From Pseudomonadota bacterium (GTDB taxonomy: Bacteria; Myxococcota_A; UBA796; GCA-2862545), in contig JAGSGY010000027.1 of NCBI GenBank assembly GCA_023954855.1, forward strand, positions 1-60,919: 60,919 nt of DNA. Direction: 5' to 3'. The notes beneath the pieces were generated by a model, which was not told the DNA's origin, searched no databases, and worked only from the letters and a program-made list of their open reading frames with translations. Both the position numbers and the translations under genes were made by a program. Within the stretch, counting starts at the first letter, position 1, and each line of letters opens with the position of its first letter. Of the stretch, positions 1,242 to 58,877 are shown in pieces.

Positions 1242-1691
1242 CTAGGGCGCGCTTGTGACCATCTCGACGGACGAGGAGGTCAGCTCACCGGCAGCATCGG
1301 TAAAGCTCGCCGTCATCACGGCCTCGGAGCCGTCGAGAGCCGCTACCGCACTCGCATCCTCTTGGGAGAGCCAGTGCATCACGTGAAGACGCCACCAGCC
1401 GGTCTCGGTGTCAAACGAGGGCACTTCGGCCCGCGACTCCTGGTGCGAGACGACCCCGTCGAACTCTAGGCTCCACGCTCCGGCCACCGCACCCGCGCCC
1501 TCGATCCCCCGGAACTGAACGTTCACGTCGACCAGAAAAGAGGTCTCATCGAAGGCCCGAATCTCGAGCGCGTCACCGTCGCAGTACGGCGTGAAGGTGT
1601 CCACGCTGAACAGGCCCCACTGGACATCGCCGGTGCAGGAATCACTCTCGCTGCATCCGACGAGAAGGAACAAAGGAACGAGGTAGCGCAC
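1242..1691 (-). CDS. Small lipoprotein of unknown function
   Basis: 149 residues beginning VRYLVPLFLLVGC, a short type II signal peptide with lipobox Cys at residue 13, so it should be lipid-anchored in the envelope. The GTG start at 1691 is chosen because CGGAG lies 5 nt upstream and because it puts the signal peptide at the very N-terminus; the longer ORF upstream is Arg/Trp-rich and looks non-coding. The mature part is acidic with alternating hydrophobic residues (probable beta structure) and has no recognisable domain. It is the first gene of a two-gene unit with the acyltransferase downstream and is divergent from the lipoprotein gene at 1875. Confidence 0.75.
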   Translation of the reverse strand: MRYLVPLFLLVGCSESDSCTGDVQWGLFSVDTFTPYCDGDALEIRAFDETSFLVDVNVQFRGIEGAGAVAGAWSLEFDGVVSHQESRAEVPSFDTETGWWRLHVMHWLSQEDASAVAALDGSEAVMTASFTDAAGELTSSSVEMVTSAP

Positions 1692-1830
1692 GCAGTCTCC
1701 GAGGTTCGGACGCCTAGATAGCCCGGTCCGGCCGGTCCACGCCGTCACCGATCGACGACACCGGTCCATCTCGTTGACGCCTCGCCGGCGGCAACCCCAG
1801 CTCAAGTCGCTAAACATAAGGATCCGCCCC

Positions 1831-1847
1831 TGGCACGCCAGCTGCAT
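1831..1847 (+). promoter_or_regulatory. Sigma-54 type (-24/-12) promoter
   Basis: TGGCACGCCAGCTGCAT matches the sigma-54 consensus TGGCACG-N4-TTGCW at all but one position. GG (1832-1833) and GC (1844-1845) are separated by exactly 10 nt. The GC lies 29 nt before the ATG of the lipoprotein gene at 1875, with an AAAGGAG ribosome binding site in between. The same arrangement and distance recur upstream of the related lipoprotein at 12732. Confidence 0.6.
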
Positions 1848-1874
1848 CGTCGATGGCAACAAAGGAGTGCCGCC

Positions 1875-2522
1875 ATGACCCGCGCCAGAGTCCACACCCG
1901 ACCGATCCTCGCCAGCCTACTCGCCCTCACCCTGTTCGGATGCGGCGCGCCCCGAGAGAACTGGGCCGAGGGCAACTGCGACGACGGCCTCGACAACGAC
2001 CTCGATGGCCTGCTCGACTGTGAGGAGGCCGAGTGTGGCTTCGCCGAGGTGTGCGGCGGTGAATCGTCTCTCGACACCGGCTTCTCGAGCGCTACCGCCA
2101 GTGGAGCAACCACGCAGTGGGTCTTGGACGGCTTCACCTTCAACGACGGCGGCACGGGCAAGGGCTTCTTTGTGTACGACGCCAGCATGGACCAGATCAC
2201 CACTTGGTCTCTCTGCGTGACCGCGGGCCCGCAGTTCCCAGCGATGGTGTACGACTCCACCACCTCACACGCAGCCTGGAACGACTACCATGATGCCTAC
2301 AGCTTCTCCGGAACCGCGATCGTGGGCCCGTACAGCAATTCCTACCGAATCCTCCGGATCCGCACCAGCGCGGTGGAACCCGCCGCCGCACAGCCGGACG
2401 ACTCGCGGCTCGTCAGCGGGGTAGAGTGCGTGAACTGCGCTCCACTACGCACCATCACGAGTGGCGAGATGGTGGCCGTCTCCGAGGGGCAACTGCCGTC
2501 CTCGTGCGAGGACATGCCCTAG
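1875..2522 (+). CDS. MopE-type repeat lipoprotein
   Basis: 215 residues. Residues 1-23 form a signal peptide ending LTLFGC, a lipobox with Cys23. It is followed by CDDGLDNDLDGLLDCEEAEC (residues 35-54), one copy of the Cys/Asp/Gly-rich putative metal-binding repeat seen in MopE-like and other myxobacterial surface proteins. The rest (residues 75-215) is rich in S, T, Y and aromatic residues, probably a beta domain, with Cys pairs such as VECVNC. The start is supported by AAAGGAG 8 nt upstream of the ATG and by a sigma-54-like promoter. It has the same architecture as the protein at 12732 (lipobox, MopE repeat, beta domain), so the two look like paralogs. The function is unknown; a surface calcium-binding role is only an inference. 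Confidence 0.85.
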   Translation: MTRARVHTRPILASLLALTLFGCGAPRENWAEGNCDDGLDNDLDGLLDCEEAECGFAEVCGGESSLDTGFSSATASGATTQWVLDGFTFNDGGTGKGFFVYDASMDQITTWSLCVTAGPQFPAMVYDSTTSHAAWNDYHDAYSFSGTAIVGPYSNSYRILRIRTSAVEPAAAQPDDSRLVSGVECVNCAPLRTITSGEMVAVSEGQLPSSCEDMP

Positions 2523-2540
2523 CGCCCCTCGAAGCTGAGC

Positions 2541-2843
2541 CTACAGGCTCGAGCAGGGCTTCATGCCCTCGAAGTCGGGAATCTCGCCGTTGCACTTCGC
2601 ACCGTCGATCATGCACTGGTACATCTCGGACATGTCGTTCGGATTCATGTTCAACGCCTCGGGACACATGTCCGACGACTCGTACTGAATCGAGCTCGTG
2701 CACTCGAGCGCGTTGTGGTGGGCCACGTAGGCCTCACACGCACCGACGTTGTCGAAGCCGCCTCCGAGTCCACCACCACCGCCGCAGGCAAGGCCAAAGG
2801 TCAGAGTCGCTGCAGCCGTCGCGAGGAGAGTCCACTTCTTCAT
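2541..2843 (-). CDS. Small Cys-rich lipoprotein
   Basis: 100 residues: a signal peptide with two N-terminal lysines, lipobox LTFGLAC with Cys20, then a glycine-rich linker (residues 21-29) and a small acidic domain with six cysteines (residues 36, 48, 60, 77, 84, 97) that could form three disulfides. The start is fixed by GGAG 7 nt before the ATG; a longer frame upstream is the antisense shadow of the next gene. It is convergent with the MopE-type lipoprotein and lies downstream of, and in line with, nothing obviously related. Function unknown. Confidence 0.8.
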   Translation of the reverse strand: MKKWTLLATAAATLTFGLACGGGGGLGGGFDNVGACEAYVAHHNALECTSSIQYESSDMCPEALNMNPNDMSEMYQCMIDGAKCNGEIPDFEGMKPCSSL

Positions 2844-2914
2844 GTCGTTGCTCCGAATGCGCGTGAAGCGCGCGGGTTCGTCGCACCCTACACCGCCGCG
2901 CGTGCCCGCGTCCG

Positions 2915-5458
2915 TCACTTCGTCAGGGACAAGACCTTGAGCTCGGCGATGTTCACGAAGTTGCGGGTCTGGTCCCCACCGCCTTCGGAGCGGTACAGCG
3001 TGTGGCGGTCGAGGTAGGACATGTTGGGCGCCTCGGAAACGCGCACGGTGTAGGTCTGACCGACGACCAGGTCTGCACGAACAAAGCTGCTGTCCTGCCA
3101 GGCATCCCAAGTGCCGAGATGGGGCATGACGACCGGCCCCTCGGACACAAGCCGGCTGGAGGCGTCGCGGACCTGCAGCCACTTGTGGGCGGTGGTGATG
3201 CCCGTGCTCACCGCGCCAGCGCCGTTGCCATACGTCAGCTGCAGCAGGTGCGGTCCCGTGGTCCCCGCAGTGATGCTCATGTCGAGGGTGTCGCTCGGCG
3301 CGCCCCATCCCTCGTAGTGCTCGCGTCCCCAGTTGTTGACGAGGGTGCCGCCCTGAGCCGAGAAGGAGGACGCCTCCACCCCCTGCACGCGCTCATCGGA
3401 GCTGCCCCACCAGCATCGCGGTGGCGAGTGGTGCGAGACGTTGCCCGAGCCGAATTCGGACTCGAGCGCGTAACAGTGGCTAATGCCGGGATCGGAGCCG
3501 ATGTCGGTCCACGTCGTTCCCGTCAGCTGGCTCGCAACCCGCCGGCCATCGCGAAACACGCTGAAGGTCACGCCAGACTCACCGGACGCGTCCAGGCCGA
3601 GGATGAGGTGGGTGCCGTCGCTGGTCAGGGCGGTGATCTGCGGTTCCTTTGGCGCCCAGAGTTGGGTAAAGTCGCCATCGACGACCTCGCGCAAGCCGCC
3701 GGCGCTCGGCTGCATCGCCCCGAGGGTCACGCGTACTTCATGGTCACCCGCCGAAGGCGCGAAAGAAGAGCCCAATACACCGCCTCCGTCGAAGTCGACC
3801 GAGCTTACGGCGTAGGCCCCCTCTTCGTCGGAGGCCGCGGGCAAGTCGATGGTGACGTCGATCAGAGCGCCACGGTACGGAACGTCGTGAAGCACGAGCG
3901 AATCGCTCTCGGCGAGCCAACCATTGCGAAGTCCGCTGGTCACGAAGGGCTCGATGGACAGGCCGGTCTGTGTCGCCTCGATGCCCACAATGCCTCGGGT
4001 CACCATCGCCACGAAGCCGGCGACCGACCACAGCTGGCGACGTGAGTTGACGACGGGCCCCGAGTAGTCGCCGTCCAGGTACCAGTTGGCGCCGGTGAGG
4101 AACTCGAAGTTCTCCATGTTCGACAGGTTGAGGGCGGCGCCCCTGACGAGCGAGTGCACGTCGTGATCGAAGACCTCGCTATTGCCCGCCCGACGCGATG
4201 CGCGAAGGTCATAGGCCGTGACGAACGGCCACACCGCGCGGTTGTGGTACACGGGCACGAAGGGCTGCTGCGGCCAGAGAACCGGGGGACCAGCGGGTGC
4301 ATGCGGGTAGGCCTCGACCATGTCGACCACGCGGCGGTCGTCGGCGAGCCAAAGCCCGGCGAGGGACTCGCCCAGCAAGTCGAACTTGCGGACCGGCGCA
4401 TCGTCGAGGTGCGTGGTCTTCATGGCGCTGTAGAGCGAGTCTTCGAGAAGCCAGAACTCGCGATCGATGGCGAGACCGAGCTCGTCGCGCCAGCCTGCAT
4501 ACTTGAGCGAAGCGGTGCCTTTGCCCTTCTCAGCGGCCAGCTCAGACGCCACGTGGAGCATGCGCCAGTGGGCGATGTTGGTCGAGAGCGTCTTGGACAT
4601 GCCGATATGCACGGTGTCGTCGGCGGTCCAGCTCGGGTAGCTCTGCTCCCTCCAGTCGAGAAAGGACTGTTCGCCGCGGTAGAGACCGTCTGTCGCGTCG
4701 TAGATGTAGACCCGGTCCTCGTCAATGGTGTTGACGATGGCCTCGTAGGCGGTGTCGCGGAAGGCCGTGCGCTCGGCACCATCCAGGAATTTGAGCAACT
4801 CCCACGCGCCGAGGGCCCACACCGCACGGTCGGTGCTCACCGGCCAAGAGCCCCCACTTCCCGTGTCCTGAACCAGCGTGGGGTGTCCTCCGCCCGCACT
4901 GTCCTTCCGGTTCGAGATCTTGAACAGAAGTGAGTTCTTGGAGCGGGTCGGGTCGACCATGGCCAGGGAGTGTTCGACCGCGTAGCCAATGTCGCGCGTC
5001 CACACCCAGCTCCACTTCTCGCCGGTCTCGAAGCACGAGCAGTCCACGGCACCCTCGAAGGCCCCGTCCTCGATCTGCTCCACGCTGTTCTCGCGGACCT
5101 CCTGCATGGCCATCGCAAACAGGCCGTCGAGCAAGAGCCTGCCAGACCGAAGACGCATCGCGCCAGGCTGCTCGACCACGGTGACGACCGCGCCAACAGG
5201 CAGGTCATCGCGCAAGGGATGCCCGGACGAGATGACGTAGGTTCGCAGCTCCGCGTCGGGGTCCTCGCAGGTCACAGTCGCCGTCGAGCCTCCATCCGAG
5301 AAGCTGTCGAGGGCGTAGTCCGGTGTCGAGTCGGTGCTGTCACCCGAGTCGTTCACGGCCGAGTCGCCCACCGAATCCACGGGCGAGTCCCCAGGGTCAT
5401 CCGATGGCGGACAGCCCAGGAGCAAGGCGGTGAACAAGATGGGAGGCAAGCTGCGCAT
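2915..5458 (-). CDS. Lipoprotein with (alpha/alpha)6-barrel glycosidase-like domain
   Basis: 847 residues. Signal peptide with lipobox LLLGC (Cys16), then an Asp/Ser/Thr-rich tether (about residues 20-60). Residues 80-590 look like a six-hairpin (alpha/alpha)6 glycosidase: EKWSWVWTRDIGYAVEHSL, DWREQSYPSWT, the tryptophan-rich segment HNRAVWPFVTAYDLRA and GANWYLDGDYSG are typical of that clan (GH15/GH63-like catalytic domains). The C-terminal 250 residues are beta-rich and may bind carbohydrate or the cell surface. It would act outside the cell on an unknown oligosaccharide. The ATG at 5458 is preferred because it starts the signal peptide directly. A weak sigma-54-like site lies 27 nt upstream. 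Confidence 0.75.
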   Translation of the reverse strand: MRSLPPILFTALLLGCPPSDDPGDSPVDSVGDSAVNDSGDSTDSTPDYALDSFSDGGSTATVTCEDPDAELRTYVISSGHPLRDDLPVGAVVTVVEQPGAMRLRSGRLLLDGLFAMAMQEVRENSVEQIEDGAFEGAVDCSCFETGEKWSWVWTRDIGYAVEHSLAMVDPTRSKNSLLFKISNRKDSAGGGHPTLVQDTGSGGSWPVSTDRAVWALGAWELLKFLDGAERTAFRDTAYEAIVNTIDEDRVYIYDATDGLYRGEQSFLDWREQSYPSWTADDTVHIGMSKTLSTNIAHWRMLHVASELAAEKGKGTASLKYAGWRDELGLAIDREFWLLEDSLYSAMKTTHLDDAPVRKFDLLGESLAGLWLADDRRVVDMVEAYPHAPAGPPVLWPQQPFVPVYHNRAVWPFVTAYDLRASRRAGNSEVFDHDVHSLVRGAALNLSNMENFEFLTGANWYLDGDYSGPVVNSRRQLWSVAGFVAMVTRGIVGIEATQTGLSIEPFVTSGLRNGWLAESDSLVLHDVPYRGALIDVTIDLPAASDEEGAYAVSSVDFDGGGVLGSSFAPSAGDHEVRVTLGAMQPSAGGLREVVDGDFTQLWAPKEPQITALTSDGTHLILGLDASGESGVTFSVFRDGRRVASQLTGTTWTDIGSDPGISHCYALESEFGSGNVSHHSPPRCWWGSSDERVQGVEASSFSAQGGTLVNNWGREHYEGWGAPSDTLDMSITAGTTGPHLLQLTYGNGAGAVSTGITTAHKWLQVRDASSRLVSEGPVVMPHLGTWDAWQDSSFVRADLVVGQTYTVRVSEAPNMSYLDRHTLYRSEGGGDQTRNFVNIAELKVLSLTK

Positions 5459-56301: not shown

Positions 56302-56382
56302 CGAAGTACAGCGCCTGCTCGCCACGAGCCACCTGGAACTCGCCGGTTAGCGAAGCAGTATGCTTTGTTCGCTGGAGAGAAC

Positions 56383-57669
56383 ATGCGCATTGTCATCGTG
56401 CCGCGCTGGGGCGCCTCACCTTCCGACGACTGGTACCCGTGGCTTGCAGAGGCGCTGCCTGTACCGGTCGAGGTCGTGCCCCTGAAACCCGAAGCAGACG
56501 CCCCCACCATCGATGCCATGGTGACCGCGCTCACAGAGGCGGCGCCCGCAGAGACACTCTCCGAGACCGTTTTCGTGGGCCACTCCGTCGGCTGTCAGGC
56601 CATCATGAGCTTTCTCGCCACACAGCCCGCAACGACCCGAGTGCCCGCATTCGTCGCCGTTGCCGGCTGGTTTGAGCTCGACAGCAGCTGGCCCCCCATT
56701 CGACCGTGGCTCGAAGCGGAGCTGGACACCCACCGCGTGCGCGCGATGGTCCAACACATCCAGGTGGTGCTGTCCGACGACGACCCCTACACGAAGGACC
56801 ACGTCGCGAATCAAGCCGCATGGGAGGACCGTCTCGACGCGAAGAAGATGAGGGTGCCAGGGGCAGGTCACTTCAACCGCCACGAAGAGGTCTCGGTGCT
56901 CGCCGCCGTTCGCCAGGCCATCGACGCCTCCGTCACCGCCTACGCCCTGTTCGAGAAGCGCCAGAACGGCGTGCCTAAGGACTTCGTCGAGATCGAGCGA
57001 TGCGGAAACAACGTGGTGCGGCGATGGGGGCGAGCGCTCACCTGGGGCGAGGAACACGAGTCCTTCTACGAGGACACCGCCGAGGCGTTTCGCGGCTTTC
57101 GCCACGCCTGCGATTCGGCTCTCGACGATGGCTACGACGAACGGCTACGCCTGGACCACGCTCCGCACCGGATGGGCCCAGCAGCATTTCGAAGCCTCGT
57201 TCACAAGGCCGCGCGTCAGACTTTTGCCGCGACGCGCTCAGCCCGCCCGTCCCTTCACCTCAATCGGTACGCCCTGTTCTCGGACTCGTCCGCGATGACG
57301 ATCGTGCACTCTGTGGGTTCTGCCGAGGCCCTCGCCGCCTCGGAGTATCCGGACGACACGCGATGGCTCTGCGCGGAGTACGACCAAGACGACGGGGGCG
57401 AGTTTCTGCTCGCGCCGTATCGCGTGCTCTTGGCGCACTATCGCTATGCCAGTGCAGCGGACCATCCGGACGTGTTCGAGGCGCACGCGAGGTGGGTGGC
57501 CGACGCCTGCATTGGGGCCCTTGAGGACCTCCGCGGAGAGGGCTTCTTCGCTCCCGATGACTTCGTCAGCTTTCAAGTCTCGTCCGACGATGCCGGAGAC
57601 GACAGCATTGCTCGCCTCAATACCCCCTCAGTGGTCGCCGAGTGGAAAGCTTGGCGCGCGACCTGGTAG
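56383..57669 (+). CDS. Three-domain protein: RBBP9-type hydrolase, WGR domain, DUF4303-like domain
   Basis: 428 residues; GGAGAG 4 nt before ATG 56383. Residues 1-185 form a small alpha/beta hydrolase of the RBBP9/YdeN type: IVPRWGASPSDDWYPWL, nucleophile S68 in VGHSVGCQ, acidic residues in LSDDDPYTKD (132-134) and H163 in PGAGHFNRH. Residues 200-252 fit a WGR domain: FVEIERCGNNVVRRWGRALT, an aromatic strand, then the helix AFRGFRHACDSALDDGY. Residues 266-422 resemble DUF4303: RYALFSDSSAMTIVHSVGS, RWLCAEYD, FEAHARWVADACIGALEDLR and FQVSSDD. WGR domains bind nucleic-acid ends in PARPs and occur in bacterial regulators. The combination suggests a hydrolase steered to a target, or an immunity-type protein. 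Confidence 0.75.
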   Translation: MRIVIVPRWGASPSDDWYPWLAEALPVPVEVVPLKPEADAPTIDAMVTALTEAAPAETLSETVFVGHSVGCQAIMSFLATQPATTRVPAFVAVAGWFELDSSWPPIRPWLEAELDTHRVRAMVQHIQVVLSDDDPYTKDHVANQAAWEDRLDAKKMRVPGAGHFNRHEEVSVLAAVRQAIDASVTAYALFEKRQNGVPKDFVEIERCGNNVVRRWGRALTWGEEHESFYEDTAEAFRGFRHACDSALDDGYDERLRLDHAPHRMGPAAFRSLVHKAARQTFAATRSARPSLHLNRYALFSDSSAMTIVHSVGSAEALAASEYPDDTRWLCAEYDQDDGGEFLLAPYRVLLAHYRYASAADHPDVFEAHARWVADACIGALEDLRGEGFFAPDDFVSFQVSSDDAGDDSIARLNTPSVVAEWKAWRATW

Positions 57670-57703: not shown

Positions 57704-58411
57704 CTAGCCAATCAGGCCATCAAAAGGTCCACACCCGGGGTCCCCGCCCCAATCCACCTCTCCCGTCTCGCGCCAGCGCTCGAGCGCCTCGGAGTGCTCA
57801 CGCTCGAGCAAGCCAAGAACCCGGTCGGCGCTGACCCGATCGATCGACTGGCCATCCACGCTGCTCCGCGTGACGACTCGGCGTTCCGCGAGTGCGTACA
57901 CCGACAACTCAACGGGAAACGGCCGCTCGAGCAGGTGGACGTGCTGGAAGGTGCGGAACTCGGTCCCGACGCGAATGCATACCTCCTGGGTCTCGAAGGC
58001 CCATCCTCGAGTCCAGAGATCCATCTCCAGCGACTCTCGAGACTCTGTGAAGACGTGGAGGTCGATGTCACTTCCGCGACGGACATGACCGGACCAAACG
58101 CTTCCGATGAGCCGTGGGTGGAAGGTGTCCAGCGCGCGCATGACGGCGAGTGCCTCGATGCGCATGGCGGCCAAGCGGCGGCTTCTATCCTCCCCTTCGG
58201 AGAGCTCGGCGAGCTCGAGCAGTGCAGCTCGGATCTCACCGTTGCTCGGCAAGCCTCCCGGTCGAAAGCGCACCGTCTTCCACTGCGCTCCGAGCACACG
58301 TCTCGACGCAATCCGCTTCGCATCGAAGTACTGACCGACCCCCTCGAAGTACATCAACCGGGCCGCCTCGACGGCAATCCGCGCCCGCAGCCGACTAGTG
58401 CGACGCTCCAT
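57704..58411 (-). CDS. Nucleotidyltransferase (pol-beta superfamily), coupled to an HD protein
   Basis: 235 residues from ATG 58411, which overlaps the HD gene end by 17 nt. The catalytic pattern is GSVWSGHVRRGSDIDLHVF (residues 103-121): GS, then D115 and D117. The N-terminus (RIAVEAARLMYFEGVGQYFDAKRIA) is helical and the C-terminus (HSEALERWRETGEVDW) too. Such stand-alone nucleotidyltransferases may add NMP to RNA, proteins or small molecules; MNT/HEPN-like toxin systems use a similar catalytic core. The substrate is not deducible. Confidence 0.85.
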   Translation of the reverse strand: MERRTSRLRARIAVEAARLMYFEGVGQYFDAKRIASRRVLGAQWKTVRFRPGGLPSNGEIRAALLELAELSEGEDRSRRLAAMRIEALAVMRALDTFHPRLIGSVWSGHVRRGSDIDLHVFTESRESLEMDLWTRGWAFETQEVCIRVGTEFRTFQHVHLLERPFPVELSVYALAERRVVTRSSVDGQSIDRVSADRVLGLLEREHSEALERWRETGEVDWGGDPGCGPFDGLIG

Positions 58412-58877
58412 GAGACACCGCGCCATCGAGGGCTTCGAGAACATGAGAGACGGCCTGCTCAGTCGAGCAAACCCGCGCGAGGGGGTCACGGCCGGCGAGG
58501 TCCCAGCGGCGGAGGTACTCGAGGTCTGAGAGCCGCTGGGTGCCATGAAGCAACGCGCGCGTGGGCCCGGGATGGCGGAGTAGGTCGAGATGATGCGCGA
58601 TACACCAGCGCGTTCGAGCCGAAAGACCCTCCGTCAGCTCCGCACCGACGATGTCGTGGCCTGGTCCCGCACTCGCTTTGCCGACGTCATGGAAGAGGGC
58701 TGCCGCGAGAAGCTCGGGTTCGGCGTCCTCGGCGGCCGCATGGGCGTACACCTGAAGTGAGTGAAAGAGGGCGTCGCCCTCGGGGTGATAGATCGCATTC
58801 TGCGGAACGCCGTTCAGCGCCTCGAGAAGCTCTACAAGTTGGTGGTACATGGTGACGAGGGCGTGGTCCGCATCCAT
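58395..58877 (-). CDS. HD-domain phosphohydrolase
   Basis: 160 residues. YHPEGDALFHSLQVYAHA (H31, H39) and AALFHDVGK (H63-D64) carry the metal-binding HD signature; a further His lies in AHHLDLLRH. The entry HPEGDxxxH is typical of the HD domains of tRNA nucleotidyltransferases and dNTPase-like proteins. It is co-transcribed with, and overlaps by 17 nt, the nucleotidyltransferase, so one may remove what the other adds. Confidence 0.88.
   Translation of the reverse strand: MDADHALVTMYHQLVELLEALNGVPQNAIYHPEGDALFHSLQVYAHAAAEDAEPELLAAALFHDVGKASAGPGHDIVGAELTEGLSARTRWCIAHHLDLLRHPGPTRALLHGTQRLSDLEYLRRWDLAGRDPLARVCSTEQAVSHVLEALDGAVSHGASH

What the first reader, a model, noticed from the sequence alone, without database searches (positions are those of the whole stretch)
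56383..57669. Fusion of an RBBP9/YdeN-type hydrolase, a WGR domain and a DUF4303-like domain
The sequence shows an intact S68/Asp/H163 hydrolase, a segment with VVRRWGRALT and the AFRGF-to-DDGY helix of WGR domains, and a C-terminal part resembling DUF4303. Known biology: WGR occurs in PARPs and bacterial regulators and can bind nucleic-acid ends; DUF4303 proteins occur with toxin-immunity-type genes. I know of no described system with all three in one chain. Inference: a damage- or conflict-related effector in which WGR targets the hydrolase.
Basis: partly seen in the sequence, partly recalled or inferred. Interest (0 to 1): 0.75.

Follow-up and report, generated by a model that had tools for sequence, protein, structure and literature searches.

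The report
Hydrolase fused to WGR and DUF4303
One bacterial gene really does join an intact small serine hydrolase to a DNA-repair-type WGR fold and a domain of unknown function, a combination found nowhere else that I looked, but the WGR part has lost the positive charge it would need to grip DNA, so it more likely sets the enzyme's partner than sends it to damaged DNA.

Summary
Window 56383-57669 (+) is one intact 428-codon ORF with three separate domains: an RBBP9/YdeN-type serine hydrolase (residues 3-169, triad S68/D134/H163), a WGR domain (about 184-260) and DUF4303 (about 265-428). The WGR call, below Pfam's cut-off, is confirmed by a phylum-specific profile (20.3 bits; best of 20,000 shuffles 10.4), profile-profile comparison (86%) and AlphaFold2 (pLDDT 92.6; best PDB match 2ra8, Z 11.1). 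WGR and DUF4303 are two folds and form a recurring unit: one truncated Polyangia copy and one complete 259-residue copy in Pseudomonadota. The hydrolase addition was seen only here and is absent from the other 62 genomes of the order that are held.

This WGR is acidic (net -4; mean +3.8 for 30 WGRs of the phylum) and has lost the basic helix end. Neighbours are ordinary, there is no defence-library match, and DUF4303 genes show no regular toxin partner (one X-T4SS effector neighbour in about 20 loci). Best reading: a single-gene cytoplasmic hydrolase whose WGR-DUF4303 tail is a partner- or ligand-binding regulatory module. New domain combination, modest interest.

The parts
56383..57669 (+). 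whole three-domain gene, 428 aa plus stop
56383..56931 (+). RBBP9/YdeN-type serine hydrolase domain, residues 1-183, triad S68, D134, H163
   Evidence: Pfam PF06821 E 1.8e-15; YdeN 1uxo E 9e-9 and RBBP9 2qs9/9fcr; invariant triad columns
56932..57162 (+). WGR domain, residues 184-260, with W215-G216-R217; acidic
57175..57666 (+). DUF4303 domain, residues 265-428, with the invariant AL-SD--AMT motif (297-306)
   Evidence: Pfam PF14136 E 3e-12; alignment A6; AF2 model as a separate alpha/beta domain
56374..56378 (+). GGAGA ribosome-binding-site-like motif just before the ATG
   Evidence: read from the sequence

Best explanation
A soluble, single-gene serine hydrolase of the RBBP9/YdeN kind, by analogy with RBBP9 likely to cut amide or ester bonds of small substrates (for instance amino-terminal aromatic or hydrophobic residues), to which a pre-existing WGR-DUF4303 protein was joined. 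Shown: the three domains, the intact triad, the continuous frame, and WGR-DUF4303 as a recurring unit. Inferred: the hydrolase is active; the WGR-DUF4303 tail binds a protein or small ligand and so places or regulates the enzyme, rather than gripping nucleic-acid ends, because the basic surface of ordinary bacterial WGRs is lost. It probably reached this genome recently or is kept by few lineages, since close relatives lack it.
For: Domains and triad. WGR fold. Two separate C-terminal folds. WGR-DUF4303 elsewhere: L023/L087 of a Polyangia bacterium, cut at the contig end, and L176, 259 aa, complete, from the phylum of Verticiella, i.e. Pseudomonadota, with the same spacing and a like N-terminus (LFEKRQNGVPKDFVEIER / LFHRVEGGEPVEFFEVRL). 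Acidic WGR: net -4 against mean +3.8 in 30 WGRs, helix end SALDDGY instead of KTKKGY. RBBP9 is an aromatic aminopeptidase with cage residues Y99, L103, F140, L141 (PMC8866121); here W96 and Y136 stand at Y99 and F140 by alignment (partly re-read by eye), L141 becomes T137. No orthologue in the order.
Against: No orthologue of the whole protein, so no proof by conservation that all three parts work together. RBBP9's amine anchor E108 has no clear counterpart, so aminopeptidase activity is a guess. W215 and R217 are kept, and a DNA contact by them is not excluded by charge alone. DUF4303 has no known function or solved relative found.
Confidence: 0.5

Rival explanations
1. One reading: a damage- or conflict-related effector in which WGR carries the hydrolase to nucleic-acid ends.
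For: The WGR fold matches DNA-bound PARP2 and PARP1 WGRs and keeps W215-G216-R217; in PARP1 Trp589 of the WGR stacks on the 5' end ribose (PMC6135609). WGR is also joined to DNA-ligase-like and PARP-like parts in this phylum and in viral contigs, by eye.
Against: Acidic WGR without the basic helix end; the related L176 has lost the WGR letters; neighbours are not clear repair or conflict genes; no PADLOC match; RBBP9 acts on small amide substrates, not nucleic acids.
Confidence: 0.12
2. Immunity-type protein: DUF4303 is an antitoxin or immunity domain and the whole protein protects against a competitor's toxin.
For: In Dyella sp. ASV24 (L112) a stand-alone DUF4303 gene starts 18 nt after an X-Tfes effector gene with XVIPCD and peptidoglycan-binding domains, the usual place of an X-Tfi immunity gene (PMC10933484, PMC6759196, listed); in L080 a DMP19-like gene follows.
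Against: In about 20 loci looked at there is no recurring toxin partner: by eye, neighbours include PnuC-like, dioxygenase, MFS, TraB/GumN-like and lipoprotein-like genes. DUF4303 is also joined to WD40, HEAT and RNB-RNase parts. No toxin gene beside the window gene.
Confidence: 0.15
3. Passive read-through fusion: two adjacent genes joined by loss of a stop, with the hydrolase working alone and the WGR-DUF4303 part carried along, possibly decaying.
For: WGR-DUF4303 exists without the hydrolase elsewhere; the fusion is seen in one genome only.
Against: Codon-position GC is equally coding-like over all three parts; no stop or frameshift; all invariant DUF4303 columns are kept; both C-terminal folds are predicted with good confidence; no in-frame start at the junction.
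Confidence: 0.15

Closest known systems
YdeN of Bacillus subtilis (PDB 1uxo) and human RBBP9 (2qs9, 7oex, 9fcr), Pfam PF06821 Ser_hydrolase
   Same: Length, GHSxG nucleophile, D and H of the triad, E 9e-9 to 2e-4
   Different: Those chains are single-domain proteins; RBBP9's cage residue L141 and amine anchor E108 are not clearly kept
Q64V53_BACFR (PDB 2ra8), bacterial WGR protein, and WGR domains of PARP1-3
   Same: WGR fold over about 70 residues, Z 11.1 and 8-9.3; W-G-R letters kept
   Different: Acidic, no KTKKGY helix end, and joined to other partners than ADP-ribosyltransferase
DUF4303 (PF14136) stand-alone proteins of Chryseobacterium, Paenibacillus, Dyella, Verticiella
   Same: All invariant columns (AL-SD--AMT, L, L) kept; 23-33% identity
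   Different: Those are about 180-aa single-domain proteins without WGR or hydrolase
WGR-DUF4303 proteins found here: L176 (259 aa, Pseudomonadota) and L023/L087 (Polyangia, truncated by the contig end)
   Same: Same domain order, spacing and loss of the basic helix end
   Different: No hydrolase in L176; N-terminus of L023/L087 unknown, so a hydrolase there is not excluded

Membership tests
Ser_hydrolase PF06821 (RBBP9/YdeN) | profile match over most of the domain, above the curated cut-off | tested here: met
   57.7 bits against 22, positions 1-159 of 172
Ser_hydrolase PF06821 (RBBP9/YdeN) | Ser-Asp-His triad | tested here: met
   S68, D134, H163 in invariant columns
Ser_hydrolase PF06821 (RBBP9/YdeN) | hydrolase or aminopeptidase activity | not testable with these tools
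   needs an assay; RBBP9 activity in PMC8866121
WGR PF05406 | Pfam score over the cut-off of 22 bits | tested here: not met
   17.0-18.1 bits
WGR PF05406 | sequence profile similarity beyond chance | tested here: met
   20.3 bits, best of 20,000 shuffles 10.4; hhalign 86%
WGR PF05406 | WGR fold | tested here: met
   AF2 pLDDT 92.6; 2ra8 Z 11.1, 2.3 A over 70 residues; PARP2 WGR Z 9.3
nucleic-acid-end-binding WGR (PARP type) | basic charge and helix end as in other bacterial WGRs | tested here: not met
   net charge -4 against mean +3.8; SALDDGY for KTKKGY; surface mapping on a DNA complex not done
nucleic-acid-end-binding WGR (PARP type) | binds DNA ends | not testable with these tools
   needs a binding assay
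DUF4303 PF14136 | profile match over the whole domain, above the cut-off | tested here: met
   46.9-49.2 bits against 23, positions 2-155 of 155
toxin-immunity protein | regular adjacency to a cognate toxin gene | tested here: not met
   no toxin beside the window gene; one effector neighbour in about 20 DUF4303 loci, most judged by eye
known anti-phage defence protein | match to a PADLOC model | tested here: not met
   no family at E up to 1

The most novel reading that the evidence does not exclude
WGR-DUF4303 is an undescribed, cross-phylum module in which the WGR fold has been turned from nucleic-acid binding to protein or ligand sensing, and here it directly controls a fused serine hydrolase.
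Probability: 0.3. Interest if true: 0.5.

Novelty: new variant of a known kind. Interest (0 to 1): 0.35.

Why it matters
DUF4303 has no paper in the library searched and no solved relative found; a natural fusion to an enzyme with an assayable active site gives a handle on what DUF4303 and the non-basic WGRs bind. It also shows that WGR domains should not be read as DNA-end sensors by name alone.

Tried and rejected
Orthologues of the full protein: two genome-contig scans, three viral-contig scans (full protein, A1, A8), plasmids, phages, the order and up to 379 genomes of the phylum: none. Weak, partial hits of the C-terminal half in other genomes (L002, L026-L036) were taken as chance: not confirmed by the DUF4303 profile. 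Operon link between WGR and DUF4303 genes in 15 genomes with DUF4303: none seen. A mixed alignment of full protein, DUF4303s and WGR fragments put the WGR pieces on DUF4303 and was dropped. Foldseek and VIA-align 2 of the WGR-DUF4303 model listed nothing convincing for the DUF4303 part; it was not modelled alone, so this says nothing firm about its fold. An internal start at the hydrolase-WGR junction was looked for and not found. Hydrolases in viral contigs for a deeper hydrolase alignment: none. Assembly chimera considered: unlikely, since the ORF is continuous with uniform codon-position GC, but read coverage could not be tested.

Full report
Observation. The gene at 56383-57669 on the + strand is a single ORF of 428 codons. 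The start at 56383 has a GGAGA motif just upstream, and GC by codon position is coding-like and alike over the three domains but not over the possible upstream extension. The domain edges are thus joined in one real frame. The window is the whole of contig C24 of a 6.1-Mb, 178-contig genome of about 97% completeness.

Hydrolase. Residues 3-169 match Pfam Ser_hydrolase (E 1.8e-15) and the sequences of YdeN (1uxo, E 9e-9) and RBBP9 (2qs9, 9fcr). An alignment with plasmid-borne relatives keeps S68, D134 and H163 in invariant columns. Human RBBP9 is an aminopeptidase for aromatic residues, with a cage of Y99, L103, F140 and L141 and an amine anchor at E108 (PMC8866121). By alignment W96 and Y136 take the places of Y99 and F140; L141 becomes T137 and E108 has no clear counterpart. 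Small amide or ester substrates are therefore likely, the exact specificity unknown (inference).

WGR. Pfam alone leaves the WGR match under its cut-off (17-18 bits). A profile made from 30 WGRs of the phylum scores the segment 20.3 bits, against a best of 10.4 in 20,000 shuffles; hhalign gives 86% with the Polyangia homologue and 62% without. AlphaFold2 of residues 184-260 with viral WGRs reaches pLDDT 92.6 and matches 2ra8 (Z 11.1) and the PARP2 WGR (Z 9.3). The longer model, made without any full WGR relative in its alignment, shows the same fold (Z 9.6 and 8.3).

DUF4303. Residues 274-414 match PF14136 end to end (E 3e-12). The AF2 model of 184-428 (pLDDT 85.5) shows a separate alpha/beta domain from about residue 265. 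No paper in the library names DUF4303 or PF14136 and no convincing solved relative was listed. Over 24 aligned sequences all invariant columns are kept.

Distribution. No other genome of the order (62 besides this one) holds the protein, nor does the other genome of the same genus. DUF4303 is sparse: 14 of 379 genomes in this phylum, 1 of 396 (the centre genome itself) in the phylum of Frondihabitans, 5 of 398 in that of Verticiella (Pseudomonadota). It is modular: joined to WD40 propellers, HEAT repeats and an RNB-type RNase in this phylum and to HEAT-like repeats in Pseudomonadota (by eye). A scan of 84,980 species genomes with a DUF4303 motif gave 51 loci; nearly all of the 25 translated are stand-alone proteins of about 180 aa.

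WGR-DUF4303 as a unit. The nearest DUF4303 in the phylum search (35% identity, L023/L087, Polyangia) begins, at its contig end, with the second half of a WGR. L176, from the Pseudomonadota set, is a complete 259-aa WGR-DUF4303 protein (WGR profile 21.1 bits; DUF4303 E 1e-13) with the same spacing and a like N-terminus. So the pair is probably older than this fusion, and the hydrolase was added in front (inference). Only the window genome shows the hydrolase; the Polyangia copy is truncated and cannot exclude it.

What the WGR does. In PARP1 the WGR tryptophan stacks on the 5'-end ribose (PMC6135609). The 30 phylum WGRs are mostly basic (mean +3.8) and most end in a K-rich helix; this one is acidic (-4) and ends SALDDGYDE. 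L023 also lacks the basic end, and L176 has lost the W-G-R letters and most of the basic end. In this subgroup nucleic-acid binding is thus less likely, protein or ligand binding more likely (inference).

Conflict or damage role. The neighbours are a GFA-type enzyme, a pyridine-nucleotide oxidoreductase-like protein, an endonuclease/phosphatase-like protein, hypothetical proteins, a nucleotidyltransferase-like and an HD protein, an OmdA-type protein and a cytochrome-like protein (unscanned ones by eye). PADLOC gives nothing. Of about 20 DUF4303 loci examined, one (Dyella, L112) lies 18 nt behind an X-T4SS effector gene, a possible immunity gene; the others show no toxin by eye.

Conclusion. 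A genuine new domain combination built from known families, most likely an ordinary cytoplasmic hydrolase with a binding tail. The architecture is near certain; the mechanism is inference at about even odds.

Noticed in passing
L112:6657-8516: Dyella sp. ASV24: a stand-alone DUF4303 gene starts 18 nt behind a gene with XVIPCD (X-T4SS effector) and peptidoglycan-binding domains, so DUF4303 may be an unrecognised X-Tfi immunity family there.
   Followed up: partly
L016:1-1920 and L020 (reverse strand 1450-3276): DUF4303 at the C-terminus of RNB-type RNase (RNase II/R-like) proteins in two genomes of the phylum; RNB confirmed by Pfam for L016 only.
   Followed up: no
L008, L012, L015, L018, L019, L177, L179: DUF4303 at the N-terminus of WD40-propeller or HEAT-repeat proteins, a recurring multidomain pattern.
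   Followed up: partly
L176:1459-2235 (-): Complete 259-aa WGR-DUF4303 protein in a Pseudomonadota genome whose WGR lacks the W-G-R letters and scores under the Pfam cut-off (14.4 bits).
   Followed up: yes
L147:2-922; L150-L164: Viral contigs carry WGR joined to an ATP-dependent DNA-ligase-like domain (L147) and many PARP-like proteins with N-terminal WGR, by eye.
   Followed up: no
L153:1473-2555: Viral contig protein with a DnaJ-like N-terminus followed by a WGR domain, by eye.
   Followed up: no
window 57704-58877 (-): A nucleotidyltransferase-like gene (weak DUF4269) and an HD-domain gene, overlapping each other on the - strand just downstream of the fusion gene.
   Followed up: no
L082:7998-9029: Elizabethkingia DUF4303 protein with an extra C-terminal part of about 165 aa that matches no Pfam family.
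   Followed up: no
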